A stretch of 64,000 nt of DNA from Marvania coccoides (taxonomy: Eukaryota > Chlorophyta > Trebouxiophyceae > Chlorellales > Chlorellaceae). The notes under the pieces were generated by a model. It did no database searches. It had not been told where the DNA came from and saw nothing but the letters and a program-made list of their open reading frames with translations. The translations under genes were made by a program, and so were the position numbers. Positions within the stretch are counted from its first letter, which is position 1. Every line of letters begins with the position of its first letter. Positions 39,129 through 61,051 of this stretch are shown one piece after another. The stretch lies in assembly GCA_963854735.1 (NCBI GenBank), contig OY978097.1, positions 62,001 to 126,000 on the forward strand. The letters run 5' to 3'.

Positions 39129-39393
39129 TCGAAGCTTTGGGAAAGAGATGGCTGACTAAAATTTAAAAATGTGCGTAGGCGCTGCCTCGTTGTGGGGTCC
39201 TAGGCCTTGTGCAAATTTTATGCGAGTATGCAATTTATAAAAAAATGTGATCTTGAGGCGAAGCTGCGTGAAAGGCTGCAATTGTGACGTGGCTGCAAAA
39301 ACGTCGCAGCACCCAGCAGCAATTCTCAGCGCTTACGAATGCACATTTCGCACTGGCCATGTCAATTTATTTTTTTTCGGATCAATCATTGCA
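39129..39393. promoter_or_regulatory. Divergent promoter region, HPPD / SET methyltransferase
   Basis: 265 bp between two divergent starts. The SET gene's frame stays open from 39247, but without an ATG. Confidence 0.4.
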
Positions 39394-40794
39394 ATGGCAC
39401 AGCGGGCGGTGCTCCCCAAGCACCCTGGTTTCACCACCAACAGCCGGCAGCCAATCAAGACCAAGTGCTCGCCAAAACAACGAATAGTCACCAAATCTGC
39501 GGCCACAAAAGCAGCAGACACCGCCACTACTACATTTGCGGACTTGCTGGCCAACGCCGCCGACTGCACGACCCTCCAGTTGGAGAGGACAGGTGGCGGG
39601 CGCGGCCTCGTAGCCGCTGCAGACACCCCAGCAGCCCAGCACGTCATCTTGCGGGTGCCTCTGGATGCCTGCCTGGTGGTGGACTATACAGACGGCGTGC
39701 GACTGCCAGCTGGCCAGTGGCTTCGCGTACGCGGTGGCCTAGCCAAGGACGACGCCCTCCCCTGGGACCTAATCCAAGCCCTGGCGCTCCTAGACAGCCT
39801 GGCTGGAGATGGCAACGTGTTCTGGAGCCAGTACGCCAACGATATCCTTCCCCAGCCGCTGTCCCTGGCGCTGCCCTTTTGCTTGCCGGAGCGTCTCCTC
39901 GTCCAGCTGGGCCACGCGGACGTCATCGGCGCAGCGAGGGAGCAGAAGCAGCGCCTGGCGGCGCTGTTCCCGGGTCTGGCGATCCCCATCGCTGGCGACG
40001 GCCCCACATACCTGGAATGGGCCTTTGCCTGCGTCCGCAGCAGAGCGTTCAAGCTGGGGAAGGACTGTTTCGCGTTCCTGCCGTTTGTGGACGCTGCCAA
40101 CCACTCCATGGAGCCAAACGCCGACTTCAGGCTGGCGCCTGGGACTCCAGACACGGTGGAGCTCGTTTCTCTGAAGCCAATTGCCTCTGGCGATGAAGTG
40201 ACGATAAGCTACTCTGGGCCACAGGGGTACACCAACCAGCGCATGATGGCGCAGTACGGCTTTGTTCCCGAGGCTGGCAACCCCTTTGACCGGCTACAGT
40301 TCGCCTGCGCTGTAGGTTCATTTGAATATTTGTTTAACCATTCCCGGCAATGCAATGCTGGAAGCCAAGGCCAAGCTTTGAATTTATCTTAATTACTTCT
40401 TCTCTTCAAATATTGATTGATTCTACTTCAGGATGGGACACTCCTCTCGCTGGACGCCATGCAAGCTGCCCTGGGGGACAGCGAGCTGATGGTGGATGCT
40501 TTCAGCGGGAAAAATGCGTTCCTCTACGCTGCATTAAAAAGCCTGCCATGGGCAGTAGAAGAAAGTGGAGCGGCTCCCATGGCTGACCAAAAAGCGCTGG
40601 CCCACAAGATGATGGAAGAGCTGAAAGCGGAGCGGTCAACATGGGAGAGCAGCCTCGAAGACGACGAAGAAGCCCTCCAGGCAGCTGCAGCGGGCGCTGA
40701 TGAGCGGGAGACTGCTGTTGTTCGATACCGGCTGCACCGGAAAAAGCTGATTGAGGCTGCGGGGTGGATGCTGCAGGCATTTCTCTCACAATAG
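39394..40794 (+). CDS. SET-domain lysine methyltransferase, Rubisco LSMT-like
   Basis: Exons 39394-40311 and 40432-40794 join in phase 0 to give 426 aa. Residues 1-45 are basic and Thr/Ser-rich, consistent with a plastid transit peptide. The SET domain has its large insert: GGRGLVAAADTPAAQHVILR near the start, then KDCFAFLPFVDAANHSMEPN with the NH-S motif (about residue 230), then GDEVTISYSGPQGYTNQRMM with the catalytic Tyr, and MAQYGFVPEAGNPFDR. The C-terminal helical region matches the Rubisco LSMT substrate-binding domain. In plants this family methylates Rubisco or plastid aldolases; which substrate applies here cannot be told from sequence. Confidence 0.88.
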
Positions 40795-42248: not shown

Positions 42249-45200
42249 ATGAGTGAGCAAAGCAAGAGGGGAAAGTCCAGCGTCAACAGGCTGAAAGAGC
42301 TGGAACATCAGGTGTGCACTGTCGAATGCATGCGCCTAGAGTCCGTGCAGTTGACCTCCACGCAGGCGAGGATGAAAGGATGTTAAACCTCTTTTCCCCT
42401 GTGGTTTCTTGCAGTGGGAGCAGTACGAGTCCAAAATCGCGCAGCGCAGCGCCTCGCGACTGGGCTCTCGGCGCGATGCGGGCAGCCCCGCAGCAGCTAC
42501 CCCCTCCGGCATGACTGGAATGGAGACTCCCGCCAATCCCTCAGCGGCTGGCCGGTCCTACGCGGGCGTGCCGCGCTCCCCCTTGAACGCTGCGTTCTCC
42601 ATGGCAGCCGTAACCAGCACCACGCCCCTCACGGGCGCCGCCAGAAGCGCAGCTGCCAAGACAACGGCAGTCGGTGATAAAAACAGCCCCCAATCCCCTG
42701 CAGAACGCATTGCTGCGGTGCGTGCTGGCCCAGGGCCCACTCCCGCCCCAGCCCTGCCATTTTTCACCCCCGTCTCCAAGCTCCCAATTACAGCCGCCGC
42801 CACGGGCGCTCCCAGTAATGGTAATAACAGCGACGATGACCCGGCGCTGCAGCAGGCCTCCACCACCTTTCTGCAGCAGGTGCAGCAGCTACAGGGACGG
42901 TACTCTCAGCAGGTGGAGCAACTGCGAGTGGAGGTGCATTCTTTGTCAGAGCAGCGCGACGGGTTGGTTGGTGACGTGACGGCAGCGGCCTCGGCCGCTC
43001 AAGACTTGATCACGCAGCGGACAACGCTGCAGGCGGACCTGCTGCAGACAGCCAGCGAGCTGGAGCGCGCCAGGGAGCGGCTGACTAGCCTGGAGGCTGC
43101 CGCCGCTGCGGAGCACAGCCGGCTGGAGGCCCAGCGCTCCCAAATGTTGGCAGCCATGGACGCCCAGGCGGCAGCTGCCCGAGACCTGCTGGCGGCGGAG
43201 CAGAGCGCAGCGCAGGCGGCGGCTGAGGAGGGCCAAGCGTCGCTGGCGCGCCAGGCGGAGGCTCTGACTGCCCGCGCCGAGCGGCTGGATGAGTCTGCGA
43301 GGGGGTTGGCTGACCGAGATGCCGCCCTTCATGAGCGGGAGCTGGACTTCGAGGCCCAGGTCAGAGATATCACGCAGTCACTGAGAGAGCGAGAGACCAA
43401 GCTCAGCAAGGTGGAGGAGATGGCGGCGGAGCACGTCACCCGCGGGAGGGAGCTGGAGGAGCGCGAAGCGGCAGTGGAAACGGCAGCAGGGGCAGCCGCG
43501 CAGGCCAAGGCTGAGGCAAGCGCTGCTGCTGCTGCTGCAGAGGCGGAGAAGCGCCGTGTGGCGGGAGACAGCGCGGCGCTTGACGCTCGCGTGACTGCTG
43601 CAGAGGCCCGTTTGGCTGCTCGCGAAGCCGAAGTCGAGCGGCGAGAAACAGGGCTGGAGGATGCTGCTAGTCGATTTGAGGAGCTGTGCGAGCAACAGAG
43701 CGAGGCGGACGAGGCTGACCACCGCCGGCTGGCGGAGGAGGCGCAGCAGGTGCAAGCGGCAGCTGCCGTGGCAAAGGCCCAAGCTGAGGCGGCCGAAGCC
43801 AACGAGGCAGCGGCCAGGGAGCGGCTGGCGGCGCTGCGGCGCGACATCCACGACGCAAAGCGCGCCAAAACGGAGGCCATCTCCGCGAAAGCTGCGGCGG
43901 AAGAGGAGATCAGCGCGGCGCAGCGTGCTGCTGCCGAAGCTGCCAAACGCTCCGCTGCGAGGGAGGCTCAGGTGGAAAGGAAGGAAGACGAGCTGGCGGC
44001 TCTGGCTGAGCAGCTGGACCGCCGCGAGGAGAAGCTGCAGAGCGAATTGCAGGCCCTGGCTGCCCGGCAGGCGGACCTGAAACATAGCGAAGAGGTAAAT
44101 ATTGTTATTATTTCACGGTGGTATATTTCGGCATTATAATTGTTTTTTCACAGTTTCGTGATTACAAAACGTGTCAACAGTTTCCAACCAACTCATAAAT
44201 CAATGTTTTGCAGGTATGTGTTGCGGAGGAGGAGAGGCTGCAATTCATTGCCGCCGACCTGCTGTCCGCGCAGTCGCAGCTCGCCACCGCCCGCGACAAG
44301 GCTGCTGCTGATGCCCGCCGCCTCGACGCCGCTCTCACCAAGCTGGAGCGTGATTCCGCAGAGGTGGACGCTCGTGCCGACGACGTTGCCGCTCGCGAGG
44401 CCGCCCTGGAAACAAGGGCAGCAGAGTGGCGCGCAGAAGCCGCCCGTCACGTCAGCGACCGTGAGCGGGTGCTGTCTGAGTACCAGGCTCGACTGGAGCG
44501 CAGGGCTATCGAGGTTGAGGAGGTTCAACGAGCTGTAGTTTCTCGCGAGCGTACCTCCCTGCAGCACGCCCAGGAGCTGGAGAACAAGGCTCGAGCCATC
44601 GATGACAAAGAGCGCAAGGTGTTGAGGGCGCTGGCGGACCGGGAAGCCGCGCTGACCGTGCAGGAGAGCAAGGCTGCCGAGGCGAGGGCGGAGGTGGCCA
44701 AACGCGAAGCTGCCGTGGATTCCGCTGCCGCCAAGCTGTCCAGCGAACAGGAGGCGGCGGAGAAGGAGCGTGAGGCGGCCGCCAAGGCGCAGTCCCAGGC
44801 GAGGTGGGCTCAGACGGACGCTGAGTTGGCGCTGTCTGAGGTGCAAGACGAACGGAGGAGGCTGGAGAAGCGGGAAGCGCGCGTGGCAGAGCTGGAAGCG
44901 GAGACTGAGGTTGTGCATAGGCGCATCACCAAGCAGAGTGCGGAGCTGTCGGCTGCGGTGGAGGCTGCTTGCGAACGTGAAATCCAGGCGGCTGCGGCGC
45001 TCAAGGAAGCTGAAGCGAAGCTGCGGGAGGCCGTGGCGCGCGACGAGGGCCTGGAGGCGGAGCTGGAGAAGCTGGAAGCGGCGGCTGCAGCTGCGGCGGA
45101 GCAGGGCTCAGCTGCCGACGCCGCCGTGCAGCGCTCCAAGCGGGAGCAGGCGCTGGCACATTCCAGTCGCACCGCGCTGGCTGAAGTGGAGCGCGCCCTG

Positions 45201-48200
45201 GACGCTCGCGAGGCCAAGCTGCAGGACAGCTGGCGGGCGCTCACGGCTCGGTTGACGTCTCTATCAGCCGCAACATCCGCCAGCAGCGACTCTAATTCGG
45301 GCGCGGCTGCTTCTTCTGACTCGCTTCTGCACAGCGATGCGTCCCTGTTTGACGATGCTCGCGGTGCGGCAGGGCGGGACCCGTTGCGCCCATTGCCACC
45401 GCTGCCTGAGCCCGACGATGCCTCTCCAGACGGAGCCATCGCCGCCGCCCACCGCCGCCGCATTGAGCTCACCGAGCGTGAAACAGCGTTGCAGCGCTGG
45501 GCCGCCGCCCTCCACCTGGAGGCGTCCCGGCAGGCGGAGGCGGCGCACCGCATTCGCGCCCGAGAATCCAAGCTGGGTACGTCGGAACAGACCACCAGGG
45601 AGGACCGCAGCACCGCGCAGGGCTTGCTGGCTGAAATCACCGCCCGCGAGGCGGAGCTGCACAAGGTGGTTCTGAATCTTGAGGCTGCCGACGCTCGCGT
45701 CAAACGGGAGCGTGCCACCCTCGCCGAGGACCGCTCCGCCCTGGATGAGCGCATCAAAGAGGTGGCAAAGCGCGTGACGGAGCTAGACCAGCGCGAGAAG
45801 CGCGTGAGGGAGGCAGAGACGCTGTGGGGCGATCGCTTGGCAGAGGTGCAAGAGCGGGAGGCGGCAGCGTCAGAAGCGCAGCGCCGCGCAGAACGCCAAC
45901 AACACGCGCTAGAGGTGCGGGAAGCAATACTGGTGGAGCGGGAGGCGACGGCAGGCGAAGCGCGCTCCTCCGCTGCCGTCCAGCTCACTCGGTTGGAAGC
46001 CACCGAGAAGGAGTTGGCGCAGCGTGCCAAGGCGCTTGCCGCTGCGGAGGCCGAGGTGGATCGCACTCGCGCTGAGGCGCAGCGTGAGCGTGAGGACGCG
46101 GCCACAGCGCATGCAGAAGCCCGCGTGCGGCTGGTGGCTGCCGAGGAGCGGTCCTCTCAGCTGACGGCCCTGTCTGACGAACTTGAAGGGCGACTGGCGG
46201 AGGCTGCAGGGGTGGAGGATCGGCTGCGTACCATCAAGGCTCTGGAACGGGAGCTTGCTGCCAAGGAGGAGACGCTGAAGCTGCGGGAAGAGAGCGCAGA
46301 CCGGCAGGCTGCCGCTGTGTCTGCGGCTGGCGAGGAGCTGGAGGCAGACGAGGAGCGGGTGCGCATGGCTGCTGCGGCGCTGGAGGAGCGTGAGGTGGCG
46401 GCGCACGAGGTGGAGGCGCAGCTGCAGCGCAAGTTGGAGCGGGCAGAGGCGGCAGAGGAGAGGGCAAAGAGCAGGGAGGCAGAGCTGGCGGCGCTGGCCG
46501 AAGACCTGGCGGCCCAGCGCACCCAGCTAGTAAGCATTCGATAATTACAACCAATTAAATTTTGTACTTCTGTTTCTTATAAACACATTATCATCGTTCC
46601 CCCGTCTTCTTCTTGTAGGACTCCGAGCACCAGGCGGTGGCCAAGCTGCGGGAGGAGCTGACGGACGCCCAATGCCGCGCCGACGACGCCCTAGGCCGCG
46701 CCTCCCAGGTGTGCGACCGCGAGAGCGACGTGGCAGCCCGCGAGGCAGCGCTGGTACGGAGGGAGGTGGCGGTGACAGCAGCAGAGGCTGACGTGACGCA
46801 ACTGCTGCGTGAGGCCGAGGGGGTGGCGCTCCGCGAAGTTGCGGTGGTGGATCAGGAGCGGGAAGTCGCTGCTGCACGCGAGGAGCTCGCTGAGGCCCGC
46901 CGGGAAATCAAAGAGGTGCAGCGGCGGGCTGCGGCGCTGGACGAGCGAGAACAGAGGGTGAAGCGGTCCGAAGAGGAGCTGAGGGAGGCTCGTGCCCAAG
47001 TGGAGGCTTCCTCGAGCGCTGCCGCGGCTGCTGCTGCTGAGGCTGAGGCCCTGCGTGAGCAAGCGTCTGCCGCCAAGCAGGCAGCCGAGGCCAAGCTGGC
47101 GGAGTCCCAGCGGCTGGCTGAAGTCGCTGAAGACAAGAGCCGCGCTGCCTCCGAGCGCCTGGCTGCCGCAGAGTCCAAGCTGGAGCAGGCTCGACGGGAC
47201 GAGGATGCCTTGGTTGAGGAAGTGCTCACCCTGGAGGCTCTGCAGAAGCAGCTGGAGGCCAAAGAGGCGGATCTGGTGTCGAACTCGACGGCGGTGCGTG
47301 GCGCCATGTCGCGCCTGCAGTCTGAGCAGGCTGCCTGGGCTGAGGGCGCGCCCCAGCGACAGGAGGCGGAGCGGCGACACTCTGCCCTGGTGGCAGAGGC
47401 AGACCGCATCGAGTCCAAGGCTGCTGCCGCCAGGGAGGACCTGCAGGAGGCGGCTGCCCTGCAGAAGCAGCTGCTGCAGCGGGAGCGGGAGCTGGCAGCG
47501 CAAGGGGTCGCCCTTGCCAAAGACTCATCAGACGCTAACGCTCGCGCTCGCGAGGCCGCAACGGCGCTGGCCCAGGCCAAGGCCTCCCAGCAGGTGGCGC
47601 AGAAGGTGCGAGACGATGCGGCGGCGGCGGAGTCTCGGGCACGCGAAGCTCAGACGCGGGCCGACCAGCAGCTGCGGGCGCAGGAGGCCCGAGAAGCGGA
47701 ACTTCGCGCTGCAGAAGTCGAAGTGGGGCAGCTGCGGCAGCGCGCTGAGGGGATGGCGGATCAGGAGGCCCGCCTGCGAACTGCAGAGCGCCATCTGGCC
47801 TCCCGCGAAACTGCGCTGGCGGAGCAAAAAGAAGACGTTGGCAGATTATTAGCTGAAGCTGAGCGCCGCGCTGCGTCGGTCAAGGAGCGCGTTCGCGCTG
47901 CTGACGCGCGTGAAGCTGAGCTGGACGCCCGCCAGACGGAGCTGCTTGCCAGAGTTGAGACTGCCACCGAGGAGGTTGAGAGCCGGCGGCGGGAATCTGC
48001 AGCCGCCGAGGCCGCTGCCACCGCCGCCTGGGCCAAGCTGGCTGACCGGGAGGAAGCCATATCTCGGCGAGAGACTGAAGCGCAAGAGTTCAGAGCGTCT
48101 GAGGTTGCCATCAGAGAGGAGGAGCTGGCTGCCGCCACGCAACGCCTGCAGAGCGTGCGCAAAGAGGTGGAGGAAGCGCAGCGCGCGGCCCGGGTCAGCG

Positions 48201-49147
48201 CGCACGACACCGCTGATGAGGTGGTGAGTTATTGGTTGTATTGGGTTCTTGATTATTTGCAGGCTTTGGGCTGGGGGGGAGTGTTTCTTGAATAACACAA
48301 TTTCATTTCAATAGTTATACGTTTGGGTTTGCAGGTCTCTAGGGCGCGATCTGAGGCTGACGCGCTGGTGCAGCAGGCGCACGAAGAGTTGCGGCGCACC
48401 CGCGCTGAGCTTGCAGCAGAGCGCTCAGCGTTGCACGACGCCGAGGCAGCGCTGCACCGACGAGAGCTCACCTCAGAAACCGCCGCAGCAGACGCAGCAG
48501 CAGCCAGGGAGGAGGCTGCAGCCGAGTTCCGCCGTGCTGAGGAGTCTCGGTGCATTCTGGCTGAGCGTGAGCGTCTAGCCTCCACGCGTGAGGAGGTGCT
48601 GTCATCCCGCGAGGCAGAGGTGCAGCAGCGGATGGCAGAGCTGGAGCGCGCTGAAGCCTCGGTGGCGCAGCTGATGCGGCGGTTCCACCTTGACTGCAGT
48701 GGCGGTGGCGCACACTCCAGCGGCGGCGCTCTGGCGAGGTCAGAAACCCACGGTAGCAATGACGGGGCTGCAGCAGCCCCTATCAGCAATGCCACGGCCG
48801 AGATGCAGCCTCTGCACGATGCCGTTGCCCAGGGAGCGGTGAGGGTGCAGCGCCTTGAGGGCATCGTTCGAGCGATATCTCACGGCGGGGCAGTGGATCC
48901 TGGGTCCATTGCAGCAGCCCAGCGCAGCGTGGCGGCGCTGCGGGAGGGGCTGGAGGAGCTGCAGGAGGGGCTGCAGCGGCTGACGCTGCGGTGCCAACAG
49001 GACGGCGCATGGTCGGTAGGCAGCCTGGTGGTAATGTTGGCCGAGGAGAGGGAAAGGGTGCGCATTTGGGAGGCGGCGCTAGGGCGGGGCCTTGAGGAGG
49101 TGGTGGCCATGCAGCGGGCGGCACTGGCAAGGTCGTCAGGGCAGTAA
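42249..49147 (+). CDS. Giant Ala/Glu/Arg-rich coiled-coil protein, about 2158 aa
   Basis: The model has exons 42249-42311, 42415-44094, 44214-46529, 46619-48223 and 48335-49147, all introns in phase 0. Residues 1-21 are basic (MSEQSKRGKSSVNRLKELEH) and lead into WEQYESKIAQRS. A Ser/Ala/Pro-rich stretch follows to about residue 160. From about 165 to 2000 the protein is almost continuous coiled coil, full of REAEL, ERREA and AREA-type units, broken once by a Ser/Asp/Pro spacer at about 940-1000 (near 45260-45440). The last 150 residues mix helices with Gly/Ser spacers. No motor, kinase or membrane segment is seen. Rootletin-, golgin- or centrosome-type scaffolds look like this, but I do not recognise an orthologue. 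Confidence 0.8.
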
Positions 49148-50326: not shown

Positions 50327-53300
50327 ATGAAAAAACCAATCGGTCAAATGGAGGCGGCCCGGGTCGCAAAGGGGGCTCAGCCTTCTGCTGCCGCTCCGCC
50401 AAAGCAACCACCGCTGGATGGGAACAGGAAAAGGGGAGGCGAGGCCCCCAAGCCCACTGACACCTTTATCCCCCGCGCTTACCAGCTGGAGATCGTGGAG
50501 ATGGCCAAAATCAGCAACATCGTAGCTTACCTGGACACCGGGGCCGGCAAAACCTTCATCTCAGTCCTGCTGCTACGGCACCGCCTGGAGGCCCACCTGG
50601 CAGCCGCAGAGGCCGCCAGAGAAGCTGGGGAAGACCGCTCGGCGTCTCTGCCGTGGAAATCGGTGTTTTTGGCGCCACAGGTGGCGCTGGTGGAGCAGCA
50701 AGCAGCGGTGCTGGCGCGGCACCTTCCAGCACGGGTACAAAAATTCGTGGGGGTGGACATTGAGCGCTGGAACTCGGACATCTACGTGTCCAAGTGAGTG
50801 ACAGATACCAGGCCTTCAATTTCATCATGCAGCGGCGGTAGATGGCTAGGATTAAGGATTTTAGATATATTTTTTCCACTCCCGTTACTCCCTATTTATG
50901 TCTACCAATTCTGTTTGCTTTCAGCTGGCGCAAGGCTCTCGGCGACCTGGACGTGCTGGTTGCAACGCCGCAGATTGTGGTGGACATGCTGAGCCGTGCT
51001 GTGGTGCCCGGCCTGCATGTTTTCGACCTGATAGTATTTGACGAGGCGCACCACTGCAAGGGCGGCCACCCCTACAACCGGATAATGGACTGGTACAGAC
51101 AGTGCAAAGAGGGTGAGCTGCGCATTTCATCGAACTACTAAAAAAAGATAAAACCTTTAACAGCGTGATAGTTAGTCATATTGAATTTCGTGATTATTTC
51201 TCCCACGCAACACTCTACTATTGATCGACTTTAAATTCCTCGCGCAGATCGGCGTCCTCGCATCTTCGGGATGAGCGCCGCCCCTGCCGGTGCCGGCGCC
51301 TCCAAGTTCCACCGTCTCTCTGCCAGCCTGATGCAGCTGCAGACCAACATGGACAGCAAAGTAGTGACTGTGGCCGACCGAACTTCTTTGGAGGAGGTGG
51401 TGCCGCAGCCAGAGCTGGAGGTTGTTCGATACCCCCCACACATCCTGCTGGCGGTGCCGGACCTGGCGAGCCTGGAATCTGCCATCGAGCACGCCATCGC
51501 CAGGCTGGAGATAGCAGTAGCCATAGCCCAGTGAGTGATGTATTTTTGTTTTAAAATCTATGTTTATTTCTTTCTTTAACGCACAGTAGTATTGCATAGT
51601 ATTGCGCACCACACTGACATGCTGTTGTTGTTGTTTTGCTGTTCTTTTGGCCAATTGGTTGAAATTGGTTTAACTTAAAATATGGTTAATTTTTTTTCTC
51701 TGGCAGTCTGCGGTGGAATGCTGGGCTGGAGGTTGCGATTGGGTGGTCTGCAAGCGCTGACGCCTTTTTCGCTGCATTTGAGCCGGGAGCCCCGCGCTTC
51801 AAGGTGGCGCGCATGAAAGATGCCATGCGCAGCATCCTCCACGTGCTCCAGGCAAGACATCGTTCATATCGTTAGTTGATTATTGTTCCACCTCAAAGAA
51901 ATCAATCTTTTTTTCAACAACGCCCACTTTTATCTTTGCGTAATTCACGCAGAACGTCGGCGCGTACGGCGCGGCCTGCTCCACCCTGGACGCTCTCAAG
52001 TGGCTCAGTGCCGGCGCCCCAGACCCCAGAAGCGACCCCTACGAGAACACATGCAGAGCAACAAAATCAGCGACAGGGTGCCAGGGAGCAAAAACCTCAC
52101 CGCCCGGCGCCGCTGCCTCCACGCCGTGGGCGCCAGCTGGAGGCAGTACAACCCGGCAGGTTGGGCAGTACGCCGACCTGCGCGTTCAGGCGGAAGCTGC
52201 TGGCATTGAGTGGGCAGAGGTGGATGAAATTAATCGAACCAGCTGGCTGTCCACGCTGGACCTAATCAGAGCTTTCGTGGCGCTGTTCTGCGGGCTGCAC
52301 GGCGCTGGAGGGGCCGGGGGCGGCGGCACGTCGGCGGCTGCAGCGGCCACGGCAGCGTTGGCTGACGCAGAGGCTTGCTTGGCGAGAAACAGGCCGCTGG
52401 GGCATCTCCCCCTGCGCGTGATGGATGCAGTGTTGCGCACGGTGAGAGCCCGGGACTTGGAGTTCAGCCTGGCGGCGTCTGCCGCCAAGGCCAGCGATCA
52501 CCACCGCCAGCGTTTTTCATTTCCGCTGGTGGCCCCCAAAGTCGCGACCCTGGTGGAGGTGCTGCAGCGGTACCGCACCGCAGCGACAGCAGCCAACGCC
52601 CCGCAGCAGCGGTGGAGCGGCATCGTGTTTGCGCAGCAGCGGCTGGCGGTGATGGCGCTCGGTTCCTTGCTGAAGGAGCTGGCCGAGTGCGGGGCAGCTG
52701 AAGGGCTGGCTGTGCACCCCTTCATGGCGCAGGGCTCGGCGTTCGGGGCCATGAAGTTCATGCCGGAGGACCAGGCAGCCATTCTGCGGCGCTTCAAGAT
52801 GGGGGACCTCAACCTGCTCATTAGCACCTCAGGTAACAACAAGACTAGTCGGTATTAAGACGTTTATATATATATTTTTGAACTGCACTCTCTCTCTCTC
52901 TCTCTCTCTCTCGTATTCCTTCCTTCTTCCCTAGTATAATCTCAAGAAAAAAAATGTTGAACTGCAGTCGCTGAGGAGGGCATCGATGTGAAGACCTGCC
53001 AGCTGGTTGTGCGATTCGACCCCGCCCCCACCGCCCAAGCGTTCCACCAAAGCAGGGGCAGAGCACGCGCAGCAGGCAGTCACCTGGTGGCCCTTGTGGA
53101 GGCTGGCAACGAGGTGCAGGAGGCGGCAGTACAGCGCATGGCAGAGTACCAACACATGATGAGGCGGGCGGCGTTGGACAACGTCGCTGGCCTGGGGGAG
53201 GCTGTGGGGGCCGAGGGCGAGGAGGCGGAGAGCTACAGCGCTGAGGATGACGAGATGGGAGAGGAAGACGGCCCGGAGTGGGCAGCTGAGGGAGAGGGGC

Positions 53301-56129
53301 GGGTCTATCGGGTGCCTGCAACTGGGGCCGTAGTTAGCCTGCACTCTGCCGCCGAGGTGCTGCAGCACTACGTCGCGCAGCTGCCGTCTGATGCGTACAT
53401 GCTGCTGCGGCCGGTGTGGATCCTGGACTTCATGGATGCGGAGGGGAGGAGCGTGAGGGCGACGGTGCGACTGCCATCCTCGAGCCCAGTGCAGACGGCC
53501 ACCGGGAAGGTGGTTCCCACCAAGCGACTCGCCAAAGCTACCGCGGCGCTGGAGGCGTGCCGGCAGCTGCACCAGGTAGGCGCTTTGAACGACCACTTGC
53601 TGCCGGCGGCGCTTGTGCAAGATGAAGAGGAGGAGGACGAGTACGGTGCGGGAGGTGAGGAGGAGGAAGAAGCGGAGGAAGGGGAGGTGGTGGAGGGGAA
53701 GAAGCGGCGCAAGAAGGGGCTGACGTCGGTTGAGGTGCGGAGCACGCCGCCCACTGCGCTGTGCCTGCCGCTGCCGCAGTACAGCGAAGGGCCCGACGCA
53801 GCGGCGCTGCAGCTGCACGGGTACGGGTGGAAGAAGCTGAACGGGAAGACAGAGTGGCTGCCCATTGTGCTGCTTCTGCCGCAGCCCCTGCAGCGTTGCA
53901 CGGACCTCCCTCCTGCCGTGGGGCAATTTGGCGAAGAGTGGAGCAGCGCCACCCCGCTGGGGGTTTTCAGCGTGGAACCGTCGCAGGTGAAGGCCATGCT
54001 GGGGTGCAGCTCAGCGATGCGCAGCGCCGCGGGGCCCTGGTGCGCTTTGCTGCCCAGCAGCGCAAGCGATGACAGCGAAAATGGCGAACCCGCTGCAGAG
54101 TACCACGCGTTCAAGGCTACCTACGCGCTGGCGCCGCTGTTACTCGCCCCAGAGCCCCGAGAGCTGGACTGGGCGATGATTCAGCGCGTGGGCGAGGCTG
54201 CAAGCCTGCCAACTGACCAGAACAGCGCGCTGCATCTGCTGCGCACGCTGGGCTGTGCTGGGCTGGACAATTCGGTGCTGATAACCAGTTACAATAAGAT
54301 GCAGTACGTGTTTGTCAGCGTGCTGCACGACCTCAAGGTGTCATCTCCTTTCCCTCTGGACCGAGAAGCCCCGCCCTCCTCAAGCTCAAGCTCTAGAACA
54401 TGCGCTCTGATCGCTGCGATGCCAGACGGCGCTACCTACGCCGACTACTACGCCCACAGATGGGGTCGCAGTGGGCTGGACCTCGACCAGCCTCTGCTGC
54501 TGGCCAGTAAATCCAGTCGCAGCGTTCTTCGGGGCAGCAGCATTGGCGGGGCGGCAGCTGTGGGAGCTGACCACCTTCCCCCCGATGCTGATTCTACAGA
54601 GAATCGAGATCGAGTGATGCTGGTGCCTGAGCTGTGCACCGTGCACCCCATCCCTCGCAACCTGTGGCCGGCGCTGGCAACGGTGCCGTGGCTGATTTGG
54701 GAGCTGGAGGGAGGGCTGCACGCCTGCGAGGTGGTGGACCAGCTGGTGACAGCAGGGCTGCCGAGCAGCGCGTGCCCTCCGCTGGGCCTCATTCGCCAGG
54801 CGCTGACCGCGCCGTCAGCAAAGCACAACGTAGGCAACTACGAAACGCTGGAGACCCTGGGGGACGGGCTGCTCAAGTTTGCTGCATCGGCGCAGCTGTT
54901 TTTCGAGCGTCCCACGTGGCACGAGGGCCAGCTGACCTCCTCCAAGGACCGCATGGTGTCCAACTCGCGGCTGGTGAGGGTGGCGCTGGTGTTGGGCCTA
55001 GAGACGAGGGTGAGGGTGGACAACTGGGCGCAGACGCGGCACAACCAGAGAGAAGCGGTAGAGGGGGAGGCAGGGGACATGCCGCGCGTGGCGAGGGCGA
55101 TCAGAACCAGGGTGCGGGTGAGTTACTGTGGAGCGCCTTTTTCTCTAGCTCGTGTTTAGTGATATGGAGTTTCTCGTGTTATTTTCTCCTGAATTCAATA
55201 CTATTTCCGTCCCTCCAAACATTGTATAGAACTCCAAACTGCTGGCCGACGTGGTGGAGGCCTTGATAGGCTCTTTCCTCCTAGGATGCGGCCGCCCCGC
55301 CGCGCTGTGCCTACTGCGCCACATCGGCGTGGCTCAAGTGCCCTTCAACACCCTCCCCGACTACACCGTTCCTCCCGCTGACGGTTTCCACCCCATGGTG
55401 GACATCGAGGCTGTGGAGGATGCCATTGGGTACAAATTTCGGTGCCCCTGGCTGCTGCAGGAGGCGCTCACCCACGGCAGCGTGCTGGGCAAAAAGTGCT
55501 ACCAGCGCCTGGAGTTCGTCGGGGACGCGATCATCGACTACGTGGTGGCGCAATATGCCTACAAGTCCAGAGCGTAAGGATAATCAGAGTTTTTTTCTTT
55601 ATTCAAGAAATGTTCTATTTTTACTAATGCTGTTCCTTTGGGGTTTTTTATAAATTCGCTTTCATGTCAATACCTCTGTCCTCCCCCCTCAATGTGCAGC
55701 AACCCCACCCCTGCCCAACTTCACGACATTCGCAGCTCCACCGTCAACATGGAACGCCTGGCCATGACGGCGGTGCGCTGCCGCCTGCACACCCACCTTC
55801 TCTACCACTCCCCCGTGCTCTTTGCTCAGATCGATGATTATGTTACCGAAGCAGAGGCAGTGGTGGATGCGATACGCAAGCGGTACGGCCTACGTAGTAC
55901 CAGCGATGCGTGGGATGAGGTCATGCTTCGTTACAGCTTCGGTTTGGACCAGTGCAGTCCCCCCAAGGTGCTTTCTGACGTTGTTGAGTCTGTGATGGGG
56001 GCTGTGTGGTTGGATGCTGGCGGCAGCATGGAAACGGCTTGGGAGGTCGTCGAGGGGCTATTTTCGCCGCTGCCGTGGCTGAATGGCGGCAGGGTGCCGC
56101 TCAACCCCCTCAGGATCATCTACGTAAGC

Positions 56130-56179
<50 letters not shown>

Positions 56180-56497
56180 TTTATCGCAGGAAAATATCAG
56201 AAATTCTCATCTTTCTACAATTTATTTTTGCAGGAAATTGGTGGTCGCTGCGGCTATATCACCGAGTTCCGGGTGATTGAGACTGACCAGGACGTGGAGA
56301 TGGCGCGGGCTAGTGGGGCGCGGGTGGCTGTCAACGTGTACATGGGGGAGACATGCCTCGGCAGCGGGCCACCAGCGCACAACAAGAACAGGGCATCCAG
56401 GCTGGCGGCGCAGGCTGTAATGTCCAGGATGAGCGAGGGGGAGATCGTGCGCATGGTGCAGAGGAAAAAGAATGAGGAAAGGAGATACAAGAAATGA
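50327..56497 (+). CDS. DCL: Dicer-like protein (helicase, PAZ, two RNase III domains, dsRBD)
   Basis: Dicer cuts double-stranded RNA into small RNAs. Exons are 50327-50793, 50925-51112, 51248-51530, 51707-51851, 51953-52832, 52968-55117, 55230-55573, 55700-56123 and 56234-56497, 1714 aa. The helicase has LDTGAGKTF (Walker A, about 69-77) and FDEAHH (about 198). The second lobe has STSVAEEGIDVKTCQLVVRF and FHQSRGRARA (about 653-695). A Dicer-dimerisation-like region lies near 770-840, flanked by acidic linkers. A PAZ-like region ends near DGATYADYYAHRWG. RNase IIIa has ETLETLGDGLLKF and LLADVVEALIG. RNase IIIb has YQRLEFVGDAIIDY and KVLSDVVESVMGAVW. The C-terminal dsRBD has NKNRASRLAAQAVM. Both RNase III acidic sites are complete. 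Intron 4 (51852-51952) is GC-AG. The ATG at 50348 is an alternative start. Confidence 0.93.
52888..52912. repeat. CT dinucleotide microsatellite
   Basis: About twelve CT units inside Dicer intron 5, near the acceptor side; may serve as a polypyrimidine tract. Confidence 0.9.
56133..56170. repeat. TA dinucleotide microsatellite
   Basis: About nineteen TA units followed by twelve T residues in Dicer intron 8, just after the donor at 56124. Confidence 0.92.
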
Positions 56498-57353
56498 ACG
56501 AATCGGTTGATAGTCAGGGTTTTTTTTTATGAATGAGCTTTTATGCTCACAGAGTACAGCCAAAGTGATACGACCAGGCTGTTTTGTGTAAATCTAGCAG
56601 AATAAACTCTGTCAGAAATGAGTTTGGGCGGGTGAAAGGCGGTGGGCAACGCATGGAGCGGTGCGGACTGGGAGGGTTTTTTGGGGCCTCCAGGGCAGCG
56701 TACCGTATCATGCTGGTCTTGCGAGCCGCAAAAAAAGTGTAGCCGGTTTTAATGTCGATAATTTTGTGCGGTAACGCACCAATAAAAAATAACGTAAGAA
56801 AGTCAACCCGGATTCATTGATCGGCTGCCCTTCATATTCGCTCTCTCCGAGCACCATCCTTAAATAAAAAAAACAGTGGTGCCCTATCAAAATAAACGCG
56901 ATTCTAGCTCGAGAACAGGCTCCAAGGTGCCGATTCTCCGCATTTTCAGATCAAACAGATCAAGCTAATCAAACGTTTCCCAATTTTTGACGCCTCAAAC
57001 GGAGAATCAGAGGGCTTCAGAAATTTTATTACGTCTTGCTCTACCTAAATCAGCCCCAGAACCTCTGTGAGTCGCTTTTTCACTTTTTTTTTTTTTCATC
57101 TTTGGGGATCATACATTCTTTTTCGTCTTGCTTCACCTCAAGCAGCGAGAGAACCTTTTCGAGTTGCGTATCCATCCCCCCCCCCCCCCCCCCCCCCCAT
57201 TGTTGTGATCATTCGGAGTTTCCAAGAGAAACGGTCTCCTCGGCTGAACAACTTCAAATTCCGGCGACTCGCCTCAAATTTTCCCACTCGTTTTCTAATC
57301 CATCCCCCCTGCCCCCCTTCCCCTTTCTGCAGAAACGGTGGCGGAGAATTACG
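56498..57353. other. Intergenic, Dicer 3' region and Argonaute promoter/leader
   Basis: 856 bp. The last 300 bp (from about 57070) are pyrimidine-rich (T-run 57084-57098, C-run 57176-57198, then C/T-rich to 57332) and probably form the Argonaute 5' leader. The frame upstream of the Argonaute ATG is open back to 57036 but has no ATG and runs through these tracts. Confidence 0.45.
57176..57198. repeat. Poly-C tract, 23 bases
   Basis: Uninterrupted run of 23 C residues, 155 bp before the Argonaute start codon. Its exact length may vary because homopolymers are error-prone in sequencing. Confidence 0.9.
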
Positions 57354-60300
57354 ATGTCGGGCTACGACCGGGGCTACGACCAGGGCTACGACCGAGGCGA
57401 AGACAAAGGCGAAGACAGGGGCGAAAGGAAACGAGGACGCGATAGAGGAGGCAGAGACGACCGCGATCGTGATCGCGAGCGCCACCGCGGGGGAGGCAAC
57501 CGCGACGATCGCCGGGAGGGCGGCGGTGGCAGCGGTTACCGAGAGGAGAGTCGAAGGGGCTCGGAATGGGGCCGTTCTGGAGGTAAGCTAGTTTTCTCGA
57601 GCCGAAAGTAATGTTTATGGCCTGCATTTTGCCATAATTTGGGCCCACGTGATGATTACATTGAATCTATGTGCTGCAGGCGGTGGCGGAGGCAGCCGTC
57701 AGGAAGCTGGAGGCTCCACATGGGGCCGTTCTGGAGGTATGCACTCGTTTTGAGCCATACACTAAGGTTCCTGCCGCCTTCCATTGCATTTACCGTTTAT
57801 TAATGCCTCCACTCCTTGTTTTTATCGTTCTGCGTTCAGGCGCCGGCCGCTCCTACGACGATCCGGTCCCCATGGAGAGCTCCCAAGGGGACCCCGCGCC
57901 CATGGAAGACCCTGGCCGGATGCCCATGGAGCTAGGAGAGGCGCCTGCGCCTCGTGCGCCCGCAGGCCCCATCACCGTCCCCGAACGCCCCAAGCGCCCC
58001 AATCAGGGCAAAGTCGGCAGGCCCTACTCGCTGCAAGCCAACTGGTTCCAGGCAAGATACATTGTTTTTTTCTTCTGGCGATTTTCCATTTTTTTTTCCT
58101 TTATGAAAATGTCGTTTTTCTGACGCTTCCTCTTATTCAAACATCATTTTCTTGCAGGTGTCCTTCAAGGCTCCCGAGGTGTACCAGTACGCGGTGCACA
58201 TCAAGAAGCTGCCCTACGAGGAGCCCGGCGCTGAGGGCGCAGAGGGCCGCCCCGCTCGCGCCCCCCGCGGCCCTCCCCGCGAGGGGCCCCTCCCCTCCCT
58301 CCTGTGCCGCGCCGCCATGTACAGTCTGAGCAAAGACATGGGGTGGGGGCGCGGGTCCTGGGCCTTTGACGGCCGCGCCAACATGTACGCAGCTGACGCT
58401 GGCATCATCCCTGGGGAAGTGCTGGAGAAGGAGGTCATCACCACCATGCCCAGCGAGAAGAAGCCCATTAAGTTCGCGATCAAGGTGGAGCGCGTGGCCA
58501 TTCTGCCCACCGACCTGCTCACCGATTTTTTCAAGCGAGTTTGTGGCGAAATTTTCAAGGAATAAATTATTTTAAATTTAATAAATGCGTTTTATTTGGT
58601 TTCCTTCCTTCTCCCTGCTTTTCCTTTCCTTTTATTCGAAAAAAAGCCCCCCTTTTTTCGAACGCAATTTGTTTTAATCAATCCTCCCTCTCAACGCTTC
58701 TTTTTCTTTTTCTTTTTCTTTTTCTGCAGGGGCCGTGGCGACCCCGACGCCCCCCACCACCTCCTGCAGGCCCTGGACGTGGTGCTCAAGCACCGCATGG
58801 GCATGCTATCTCTGCGCGCCCCCGACGTCATGGCCATGGGCCGCTCCTTCCTCCTGTACGACCGCCAAACCGCCAGCAGGGGCATCGGCGGTGGCGGCCA
58901 GGTCTGGCTGGGGTACAAGCAGGCCGTGCGCCCGTGCCAGTCGGGGCTGGCGCTCACCGTGGACACCGCCGCTGGCGCTGTGTGGGACGTGGGAGACCCG
59001 CAGAAGCCTCGCCGCCTGTCTGACCTCATGTACGACCTGCTGGGCGGGCGCGACCGCATCGGGCCGCAGGGCGCCAGCGGCCAGCAGCTGCGCACCCTGG
59101 ACCGCGAGCTGCGCGGCCTCAAGGTGCGGGCGGTGCACAACGGCTTCAAGCGCTCCATCGTGGGGGTTGCCCGCTCCACCCCGTTCACCGAGCGTTTCCC
59201 CGACTCCTCGGGGCGGGAGGTGTCGGTGGCTGACTACTTCCGCAGCACCTATCAAGTCAACCTCACCGACCAGCGGCTGCCTTGCATCAAGGTGGGCAAC
59301 GGCAAGGTGCTGCTGCCCCCCGAGGTCTGCGAGGTGCTCCCCAAGCAGCCTGTGGGCAAGCTGTCGGCGGAGCAGACGGCCGGCATGATCAAGCACGCCG
59401 CGCAGAAGCCCGACCAGAAGCAGGCATTCATCCAGAAGCAGGTGAAGGAGGTGCAGCGCGAGGCCAGCGATGAGATGGGGGTGTTTGCCGTCAAGGTGTC
59501 CAGCAGCATGGCGCAGGTGCAGGCGCGCATCCTGCCGCCGCCCATGCTGGCCTACGGCGGGCGCAACGACCGGTACAACCCCAAGGACTTTGGGTCGTGG
59601 AACATGAAGGACCTGGCTCTGCTGGACCCGAAGAAGCTGGACTCGTGGGCAGTGGTGTCCTTTGCATCCAAGCCCTGGGAGGCCAAGGGGCTGGGCGACT
59701 TCCTGCGCACTTTCGTCAACGAGCTGCGCAATACCTCCATCATTGCCGCCAGAGACCCGCCGGTGGTCACAGGCCGCCCCGGCGCCGCCGCTGGGCCCAT
59801 CATGCAGCGGGCGGTGGAGGAGGCCAAACGTGCCTTCCGTAGGCCCCCGCAGCTCATCCTGGTGGTGCTGCCAGACACTGGGGCTGCGCTGTACCGCGAG
59901 ATCAAGCAGGCAAGCGACTCCTCACTTGGCATCCCGTCGCAGTGCATCGTGGCGCAGAAGGCGAAGATCGGGGACAAAAACCCCAGGGGCCAGCAGCAGT
60001 ACATCGCCAACGTGGCCCTCAAGATCAACGCCAAGCTGGGCGGCCGCAACCTGTCGCTGTCCCCCTCCACTGTGCAGTCTGCCGGCGGGCTGATCCGCAA
60101 CTTCGGCACCAAGCCCTACATGATGTTTGGCGCCGACGTCACCCACCCCGGGGTTGGGTCCTCGGCGCCGTCGATTGCAGCGGTGGTGGGCTCCCTGGAC
60201 GCCACCGGCGCGCGCTACGCCACCCGGCTGTCTGCGCAGCCCACCTCCCGCGGCCGGCAGGTCGAGGAGATCATCGTAAACCTCAAGGAGATGGCCAAGG

Positions 60301-61051
60301 GCCTGCTGCTGGAGTTTTTCCGCGCCACGGGGGGGAAGCGCCCCGAGCACATCTTTTTCTACCGAGACGGCGTCAGCGAGGGGCAGTTTGACCAGGTGCT
60401 GGCCCACGAGTACGCTGCGCTGCGGCAGGCGTGCCAGGAGATGGGAGACCCAGGAGCGGAGTACGCACCCCCCATCACCTTCATCTCGGTGCAGAAGCGC
60501 CACCAGACGCGGTTCTTTGCGGTCAACCCCCGCGACGCTGACCGCTCTGGCAACGTCAAACCCGGCGTGGTGGTTGACACCGGCATCTGCCACCCCTTCG
60601 AGTTTGACTTCTTCATGAACGCGCACGCGGTAAGAAAAAGAAGAAGAAGACTATTTCGGCAATATTGAATTTTTTATCCCTGAAAACCTTCTTCTCATTA
60701 ATAGCGCTGTTATTAATGTGTATTCTTCCAAATTTTCGTTTACATCTTTTGCAGGGCATCCAGGGCACCAACAGGCCCGTGCACTACTACGTGCTGGCAG
60801 ACCAAAACGGTTTTGGCGCCGACGAGCTGCAGCTGTTCACCTATTGGCTGTGCTACCTCTTCTGCCGCTGCACGCGGTCAATCTCGCTGGCTTCCCCCGC
60901 GCAGTACGCCCACCTGGCTGCCTTCAGGGGCCGTGCGCTGATGAGGGGCGGCGACAGCGACACCGCCAGCATGGCCTCTTCGGGAGAGGGCCCCCCGGCT
61001 GAGCTGCTGGCTGTGCACCCCGCCCTCAGCGGCTCTATGTTCTTCGTATGA
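57354..61051 (+). CDS. AGO: Argonaute (N, PAZ, MID, PIWI)
   Basis: Argonaute binds small RNAs and cuts or silences matching RNA. Exons are 57354-57582, 57680-57736, 57840-58051, 58158-58534, 58730-60629 and 60755-61051, 1023 aa. Residues 1-100 are a disordered Arg/Asp/Gly-rich tail with [20 protein letters not shown] repeats. The N domain starts near [20 protein letters not shown], and linker 1 has [21 protein letters not shown] contains [20 protein letters not shown] and [18 protein letters not shown]. In PIWI the slicer tetrad looks intact: Asp in [12 protein letters not shown], Glu in [11 protein letters not shown], Asp in [15 protein letters not shown], and His in [17 protein letters not shown]. 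It ends LSGSMFFV, close to the eukaryotic YFV end. Introns 3 (58052-58157) and 4 (58535-58729) read as GC-AG. Confidence 0.95.

What the first reader, a model, noticed from the sequence alone, without database searches (positions are those of the whole stretch)
50327..61051. Dicer and Argonaute encoded side by side on the same strand
A complete Dicer is followed, 856 bp later and in the same direction, by a complete Argonaute. Their products act in sequence: Dicer makes small RNAs and Argonaute uses them. In most plants and animals these genes are not known for being neighbours, so a tandem RNAi locus in an alga could mean co-regulation, a recent joint gain or retention as a unit. Many green algae have lost one or both genes. 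The linkage is seen directly; shared regulation is inference.
Basis: partly seen in the sequence, partly recalled or inferred. Interest (0 to 1): 0.78.

Follow-up and report, generated by a model that had tools for sequence, protein, structure and literature searches.

The report
Adjacent Dicer and Argonaute genes
A small green alga carries the only Dicer gene and the only Argonaute gene found in its genome next to each other on one chromosome; the two genes are ordinary and intact, and whether their being neighbours means anything is not yet shown.

Summary
Spliced models give a 1714-aa Dicer at 50327-56497 (9 exons) and a 1023-aa Argonaute at 57354-61051 (6 exons), same strand, 856 bp apart, with their domains and catalytic motifs. 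In the 22.46-Mb genome they are the only Piwi, Dicer_dimer and PAZ genes found, so the core RNAi machinery found sits in 10.7 kb, 112-123 kb from a telomere. The host is inferred to be a Nannochloris-like chlorellalean alga. Both proteins group with chlorellalean relatives, so joint horizontal gain is unlikely. The pair does not look like a bicistron: gap 856 nt, first ORF 5,145 nt, TGTAA after Dicer. The two promoters share no more words than control stretches do. Neighbours of Argonaute differ in Micractinium and Nannochloris, judged from fused gene models. The Dicer locus of relatives could not be read, so conservation is open. Best reading: a vertically inherited single-copy RNAi pair whose adjacency is probably a lineage-specific rearrangement. 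A recalled, unverified lead (neighbouring DCL1 and AGO1 gene numbers in Chlamydomonas) keeps an old linkage possible.

The parts
50327..56497 (+). Dicer gene (1714 aa, 9 exons; DEAD helicase, Helicase_C, Dicer_dimer, PAZ, RNase IIIa, RNase IIIb)
50327..50793 (+). Dicer exon 1 (Walker A DTGAGKT)
50925..51112 (+). Dicer exon 2 (DEAHH)
51248..51530 (+). Dicer exon 3
51707..51851 (+). Dicer exon 4, followed by a GC-AG intron
51953..52832 (+). Dicer exon 5
52968..55117 (+). Dicer exon 6 (helicase motif VI QSRGRAR, Dicer_dimer, platform-PAZ, first part of RNase IIIa)
55230..55573 (+). Dicer exon 7 (end of RNase IIIa, start of RNase IIIb)
55700..56123 (+). Dicer exon 8 (RNase IIIb)
56234..56497 (+). 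Dicer exon 9, C-terminal half-dsRBD-like stretch and stop
   Evidence: dsRBD-like by eye only, no Pfam match at E<=0.01
56498..57353 (+). 856-bp intergenic region: Dicer 3' flank, Argonaute promoter/5' UTR
56587..56591 (+). TGTAA, candidate chlorophyte polyadenylation signal of Dicer (signal recalled)
57354..61051 (+). Argonaute gene (1023 aa, 6 exons; RG-rich N-terminus, ArgoN, L1, PAZ, L2, Mid, Piwi)
57354..57582 (+). Argonaute exon 1 (Arg/Gly/Asp-rich N-terminus)
57680..57736 (+). Argonaute exon 2
57840..58051 (+). Argonaute exon 3, followed by a GC-AG intron
58158..58534 (+). Argonaute exon 4, followed by a GC-AG intron
58730..60629 (+). Argonaute exon 5 (L1, PAZ, L2, Mid, most of Piwi)
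60755..61051 (+). Argonaute exon 6 (end of Piwi with the catalytic His, C-terminal MFFV, stop)

Best explanation
The pair is the ordinary, vertically inherited single-copy RNAi core of a Nannochloris-like chlorellalean green alga. Dicer (helicase, DUF283, PAZ, two RNase III domains) cuts double-stranded RNA into small RNAs, and Argonaute (Piwi with D-E-D-H) uses them to slice matching RNA. The two genes are separate transcription units. Their adjacency most likely arose by lineage-specific gene shuffling; it is not an operon, not a joint horizontal gain and not an assembly join. Shown: gene structure, domains, catalytic motifs, sole copies found, phylogenetic placement. Inferred: host name, activity, independent transcription, lineage-specific origin of the adjacency.
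For: Intact models. Domains; best solved relatives by sequence are Argonaute-2 and -1 chains and DCL1/DCL4. Catalytic motifs present (the Argonaute ones align with a solved Argonaute-2 chain). One Piwi gene, one Dicer_dimer, two PAZ genes found in the genome. Trees: Argonaute in a four-row clade with Nannochloris desiccata and two unnamed rows (SH-aLRT 100) inside a 16-row clade with the chlorellalean algae (100); Dicer in an 11-row clade with Micractinium and Chlorella vulgaris (99). TGTAA 90 bp after the Dicer stop. ORF1 of 5,145 nt, 71 ATGs in it (its own start included) and 7 in the gap, against bicistron medians of 291-357 nt for ORF1 and 40-183 nt for the gap (PMC11892635 passages). Neighbours of Argonaute differ in relatives: the M. 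conductrix model is fused to an upstream L21e, which here lies on the same contig about 1.68 Mb away; the downstream piece fused in N. desiccata has its matches here on C4, C8 and C10.
Against: The position of Dicer in N. desiccata or any other relative was not read, so conservation of the adjacency is open. The fused models used for the neighbourhoods may be wrong. A recalled Chlamydomonas pairing (DCL1 Cre02.g141000, AGO1 Cre02.g141050) would speak for an old linkage; only the DCL1 number was seen in a paper. In the Dicer tree a long-branched Fusarium row stands next to the algal clade and the window's Dicer is flagged for odd composition. No transcript or small-RNA data.
Confidence: 0.66

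Rival explanations
1. Retained unit: the linkage is old in green algae and kept by selection for co-expression or joint inheritance and loss of RNAi.
For: The sole Dicer and sole Argonaute found are adjacent. Some green algae lack both genes: Helicosporidium and Ostreococcus (PMC4014436 passage), Medakamo (PMC9871001 passage). Gene order is otherwise badly shuffled (252 conserved adjacent pairs among 5,232 orthologues between Coccomyxa and the compared species, PMC3446292 passage), so conserved linkage would be telling. Recalled only: neighbouring DCL1/AGO1 numbers in C. reinhardtii.
Against: The M. conductrix Argonaute model has L21e, not Dicer, just upstream. Two eukprot rows, Argonaute scaffold20.g7698 and Dicer scaffold21.g2196, may be one proteome with the genes on different scaffolds (not confirmed). 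No shared promoter words beyond controls (23 shared 8-mers; 86 of 108 overlapping control stretches share at least as many).
Confidence: 0.2
2. Bicistronic or read-through transcript in which one promoter drives both proteins by leaky scanning, as in known green algal bicistrons.
For: Same strand, collinear, under 1 kb apart, closer than the median gap of 2,518-3,415 nt between other collinear genes in two green algae; such bicistrons are known there (PMC11892635 passages).
Against: Gap 856 nt and ORF1 5,145 nt against medians of 40-183 and 291-357 nt; 78 ATGs before the Argonaute start; TGTAA after Dicer.
Confidence: 0.04
3. Recent joint horizontal gain of an RNAi cassette.
For: Adjacency itself; place 112-123 kb from a telomere.
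Against: Both proteins group with chlorellalean relatives; thirteen introns; GC3 of 0.76 and 0.86 beside 0.82 in the next ORF.
Confidence: 0.02
4. The adjacency is an assembly join.
For: A 23-base C run in the gap (57176-57198) is a weak spot for some sequencers.
Against: No N; both genes intact within a 3.40-Mb contig that begins with telomere repeats; no second copy of either found. Read data were not available.
Confidence: 0.04
5. Co-regulated neighbours in this lineage only: a recent neighbour pair now sharing chromatin or regulatory elements (compatible with the best explanation as to origin).
For: Short gap and same pathway; possible in principle.
Against: No shared promoter words above controls; no expression data.
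Confidence: 0.08

Closest known systems
Land plant Dicer-like proteins (DCL1/DCL4; PDB 7eld, 9kby)
   Same: Helicase, Dicer_dimer, PAZ and two RNase III domains
   Different: No double-stranded RNA binding domain found by Pfam at E<=0.01; only 28-30% identical to the five land plant rows over exon 6; a single gene found in place of a family
Chlorellalean Argonaute 1 (Nannochloris desiccata Ndes2526B_g05451, Chlorella sorokiniana, Micractinium)
   Same: Full domain set, 49-63% identity
   Different: Neighbouring genes differ where a fused model shows them
Single-copy Dicer and Argonaute in Chlorella; both genes also in Auxenochlorella and Prototheca wickerhamii
   Same: One of each is already reported for Chlorella (PMC4014436 passage); presence in the other two (PMC7941945 passage)
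   Different: Their genomic distance was not stated in the passages seen. For Coccomyxa the sources disagree: single copies of both or two Argonautes and no Dicer (PMC3446292 passage)
C. reinhardtii DCL1-3 and AGO1-3
   Same: Green algal Dicers and Argonautes; DCL1 is Cre02.g141000 (PMC11905391 passage)
   Different: Three of each there (PMC4817775 passage), one of each found here; PMC11905391 says PAZ is absent in its DCLs, here PAZ is present. Adjacency of DCL1 and AGO1 there is recalled, not seen
Green algal bicistronic loci (PMC11892635)
   Same: Two collinear ORFs on one strand
   Different: Gap, ORF1 length and ATG load do not fit

Membership tests
Dicer | DExD/H helicase with motifs I, II and VI | tested here: met
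   DEAD 52 bits, Helicase_C 46.1 bits; DTGAGKT, DEAHH, QSRGRAR (motif names recalled)
Dicer | Dicer dimerisation domain (DUF283) | tested here: met
   85.6 bits, cut-off 23.7
Dicer | PAZ domain | tested here: met
   26.1 bits on the whole protein, under the 28.8 cut-off; 31.1 bits and over the cut-off on the exon; the exon 6 model (mean pLDDT 65) matches human Dicer Platform-PAZ-Connector structures, best E 1.6e-9
Dicer | Two RNase III domains with catalytic acidic residues | tested here: met
   two stretches; ETLETLGDG/LLADVVEAL and QRLEFVGDA/VLSDVVESV (role of the residues recalled)
Dicer | C-terminal double-stranded RNA binding domain | tested here: inconclusive
   no Pfam match at E<=0.01; a half-domain-like stretch by eye; not every Dicer has one (recalled)
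Argonaute (Ago clade) | N, PAZ, MID and PIWI domains in order | tested here: met
   ArgoN, L1, PAZ, L2, Mid, Piwi; ArgoL2 alone under its cut-off
Argonaute (Ago clade) | Slicer tetrad D-E-D-H | tested here: met
   [32 protein letters not shown] align with a solved Argonaute-2 chain (tetrad positions recalled)
Argonaute (Ago clade) | Binds small RNAs and cleaves targets | not testable with these tools
   no experiment
Green algal bicistronic locus | Short first ORF and short gap, few ATGs before ORF2 | tested here: not met
   5,145 nt, 856 nt, 78 ATGs against medians 291-357 and 40-183 nt
Conserved syntenic RNAi unit | Same Dicer-Argonaute adjacency in relatives | tested here: inconclusive
   no relative's Dicer locus could be read; neighbours of Argonaute differ in two relatives by fused models

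The most novel reading that the evidence does not exclude
Dicer and Argonaute linkage is an ancient chlorophyte arrangement, shared with Chlamydomonas DCL1-AGO1 and kept through hundreds of millions of years of gene shuffling because the pair works, is regulated, or is lost as one unit.
Probability: 0.13. Interest if true: 0.68.

Novelty: new member of a known kind. Interest (0 to 1): 0.34.

Why it matters
A small alga with one Dicer and one Argonaute found, on 10.7 kb, is a convenient minimal RNAi system: both could be removed with one deletion, and small RNAs then asked for. If relatives share the linkage, it would help explain why some algae lack both genes, since one deletion would remove the pathway. 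If they do not, it is an anecdote of gene order.

Tried and rejected
Synteny in relatives: four scans of viral contigs (Argonaute exon; Dicer alignment; Dicer exon; Argonaute alignment) gave no relative. One scan of genome contigs gave a fungus-like Argonaute on a 4.6-kb contig filed as a Phycisphaerales MAG, too short and too distant to help. Locus-tag comparison: Argonaute tags of several algae were seen among the 120 listed of 942 hits, but no tagged Dicer from the same algal genomes among 60 and 104 hits; all three searches hit their candidate cap, so absence there means little.

Literature: ten searches, of which some aimed at Dicer-Argonaute gene position or algal RNAi genes, one at the two Chlamydomonas gene numbers, one at Nannochloris and one at a linked fungal locus. 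In the listings, and in the passages I opened, I saw no report of Dicer next to Argonaute. No paper was read whole. Casas-Mollano 2008 and Cerutti 2011, the likeliest places, are not held.

Other RNase III genes: C2:1.24 Mb is a 705-aa ORF with one RNase III domain plus dsrm; C2:1.52 Mb a 150-aa ORF with one RNase III domain; at C1:3.37 Mb I first scanned the wrong ORF (no match), and the right one, 151 aa, has one partial RNase III match. None has Dicer_dimer or PAZ, since those were found only in the window. RdRP and a HEN1-type domain (family choice recalled) gave no match, but no control genome rang, so this does not show absence.

Repeats around the pair: 16 direct families and 10 inverted pairs, mostly weak or low-complexity. 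Only short ORFs in the gap. Rfam: no match at gathering score in the window.

Full report
What is there. The window is bases 62001-126000 of contig C1 (3.40 Mb) of a 22.46-Mb, 15-contig genome; the contig begins with CCCTAAA telomere repeats. Reading the sequence and splicing it by hand at GT-AG or GC-AG sites gave two intact genes. Dicer: nine exons, 50327-56497, 1714 aa. Argonaute: six exons, 57354-61051, 1023 aa. Three of the 13 introns have GC donors. Around these the joined protein runs without a gap against relatives: HVLQNVGAYGAACSTL here, HVLGQIGPWGAAKSTL in P0122; NWFQVSFK here, NWFSVDLK in Nannochloris; DFFKGRGDP here, DFFAGKGDP in P0001 (sequences, compared by eye; first one located).

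Domains. Pfam finds DEAD, Helicase_C, Dicer_dimer, PAZ and two RNase III stretches in the first, and ArgoN, L1, PAZ, L2, Mid and Piwi in the second. Dicer PAZ (26.1 against 28.8 bits) and ArgoL2 (30.8 against 33.3) fall under their cut-offs in the whole protein. PAZ passes on the exon, and a model of exon 6 (mean pLDDT 65, so moderate) matches human Dicer Platform-PAZ-Connector structures, best E 1.6e-9. No double-stranded RNA binding domain was found by Pfam. Helicase, RNase III and slicer motifs are in place, the last aligned with a solved Argonaute-2 chain. The best solved relatives by sequence are DCL1 and DCL4 and Argonaute-2 and -1.

Copy number. In six-frame searches of the own genome the Piwi family matched two exons, both of this Argonaute; Dicer_dimer matched once; PAZ twice, once in each gene. 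Five RNase III matches were found: two are the Dicer; the others are a 705-aa ORF with one RNase III domain and a dsrm motif and two ORFs of 150 and 151 aa. So the sole Dicer and the sole Argonaute found are neighbours. One of each is not new in itself: single copies are reported for Chlorella (PMC4014436 passage). RdRP and a HEN1-type domain gave nothing, but without a ringing control.

Origin. The Argonaute's nearest kin are an unnamed protein (65%) and Nannochloris sp. 'desiccata' (63%), then other unnamed rows, with Micractinium, Chlorella, Parachlorella and Auxenochlorella at about 50%. A tree of 37 rows puts it with Nannochloris (SH-aLRT 100) inside a clade of 16 with the named chlorellalean algae (100). 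For Dicer, 26 rows: a five-row set with unnamed sequences (98), and an 11-row set with Micractinium and Chlorella vulgaris (99). The 36 and 25 other rows were chosen by me from the 120 listed of 942 Argonaute hits and from the 60 and 104 Dicer hits. Both trees are quick searches without bootstrap, and neither outgroup was one side of a branch. In the Dicer tree a very long-branched Fusarium row stands next to the algal clade, and 12 rows, the window's Dicer among them, are flagged for odd composition. The trees agree in placing both genes among chlorellalean algae, so joint horizontal gain is unlikely. GC3 is 0.76 (Dicer), 0.86 (Argonaute) and 0.82 (neighbouring FBPase ORF). The host name is inferred from these trees; N. 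desiccata has a genome of similar size (21.6 Mb) but 45.0% GC (PMC12636532 table passage), against 56.7% in this window, so it is a different species.

One transcript or two. Green algal bicistrons have, in C. reinhardtii and A. protothecoides, median first ORFs of 357 and 291 nt and gaps of 183 and 40 nt, against gaps of 3,415 and 2,518 nt between other collinear genes (PMC11892635, passages). Here the first ORF is 5,145 nt with 71 ATGs (its start included), the gap is 856 nt with 7 more, and a TGTAA, the recalled chlorophyte poly(A) signal, lies 90 bp after the Dicer stop. Two transcription units are the natural reading, although 856 nt is shorter than those medians for collinear neighbours. 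The 856-bp stretches before each gene share 23 non-simple 8-mers; 86 of 108 GC-matched (and overlapping) control stretches of the window share at least as many with the Dicer promoter. This is a weak test, but it gives no hint of shared regulation.

Is the linkage conserved? I could not read the Dicer locus of any relative. Indirect evidence: the M. conductrix Argonaute model carries an L21e ribosomal protein at its start, so L21e rather than Dicer seems to lie upstream. L21e here is on the same contig but about 1.68 Mb away. The N. desiccata model carries a foreign downstream piece whose matches here are on C4, C8 and C10. Both suggest rearrangement around Argonaute, if the fused models reflect true neighbours. 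Two eukprot proteins named scaffold20.g7698 (Argonaute) and scaffold21.g2196 (Dicer) may be from one species with the genes on different scaffolds; I could not confirm that they share a proteome. On the other side, I recall C. reinhardtii DCL1 as Cre02.g141000 and AGO1 as Cre02.g141050, consecutive numbers; the first was seen in a paper (PMC11905391), the second in none. Gene order in this class is badly shuffled (252 conserved adjacent pairs among 5,232 orthologues, PMC3446292 passage), so real conservation would be remarkable.

Chance. For two named single-copy genes among 9,123 (the N. desiccata count, PMC12636532 table passage) adjacency has probability 2.2e-4, on the same strand 1.1e-4. 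Since any pair of one pathway would have drawn the eye, some such neighbours per genome are to be expected (my estimate, not computed).

Verdict. Confirmed observation, ordinary genes, unproven meaning. The most useful fact is that this alga's core RNAi machinery, as far as found, is one Dicer and one Argonaute in 10.7 kb.

Noticed in passing
window introns 51852-51952, 58052-58157, 58535-58729: Three of 13 introns have GC-AG borders, well above the roughly 1% recalled for plants; genome-wide rate not examined.
   Followed up: no
window 54269-54667 (PAZ of Dicer): A PAZ domain is present in this Dicer and flagged in 3 (P0121, P0123, P0126) of the 9 rows P0121-P0129, although PMC11905391 (passage) suggests that PAZ may have evolved later because C. 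reinhardtii DCLs lack it; loss or divergence in Chlamydomonas may fit better.
   Followed up: partly
P0009 and P0002: Public Argonaute models of Micractinium conductrix and Nannochloris desiccata look like chimeras, fused to L21e upstream and to an unrelated downstream piece respectively.
   Followed up: partly
L021: A fungus-like Argonaute, split over several segments, on a contig filed under a Phycisphaerales bacterial MAG: probable eukaryotic contamination.
   Followed up: partly
window 57012-57174: Imperfect 71-nt direct repeat (70% alike, spacing 92) in the 5' flank of Argonaute, followed by a 23-base C run.
   Followed up: no
window 42409-49147: Long, Glu/Ala/Arg-rich, coiled-coil-like ORFs upstream of Dicer on the same strand; the three scanned (42409-44139, 44208-46544, 46637-48295) have no Pfam match at E<=0.001.
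   Followed up: no
window 39247-40392: SET-domain ORF about 10 kb upstream of Dicer; not tested for a link with silencing.
   Followed up: no
window 57354-58018: Arg/Gly/Asp-rich N-terminal tail of Argonaute (27 R, 37 G and 16 D in 155 residues), a candidate site for arginine methylation.
   Followed up: no
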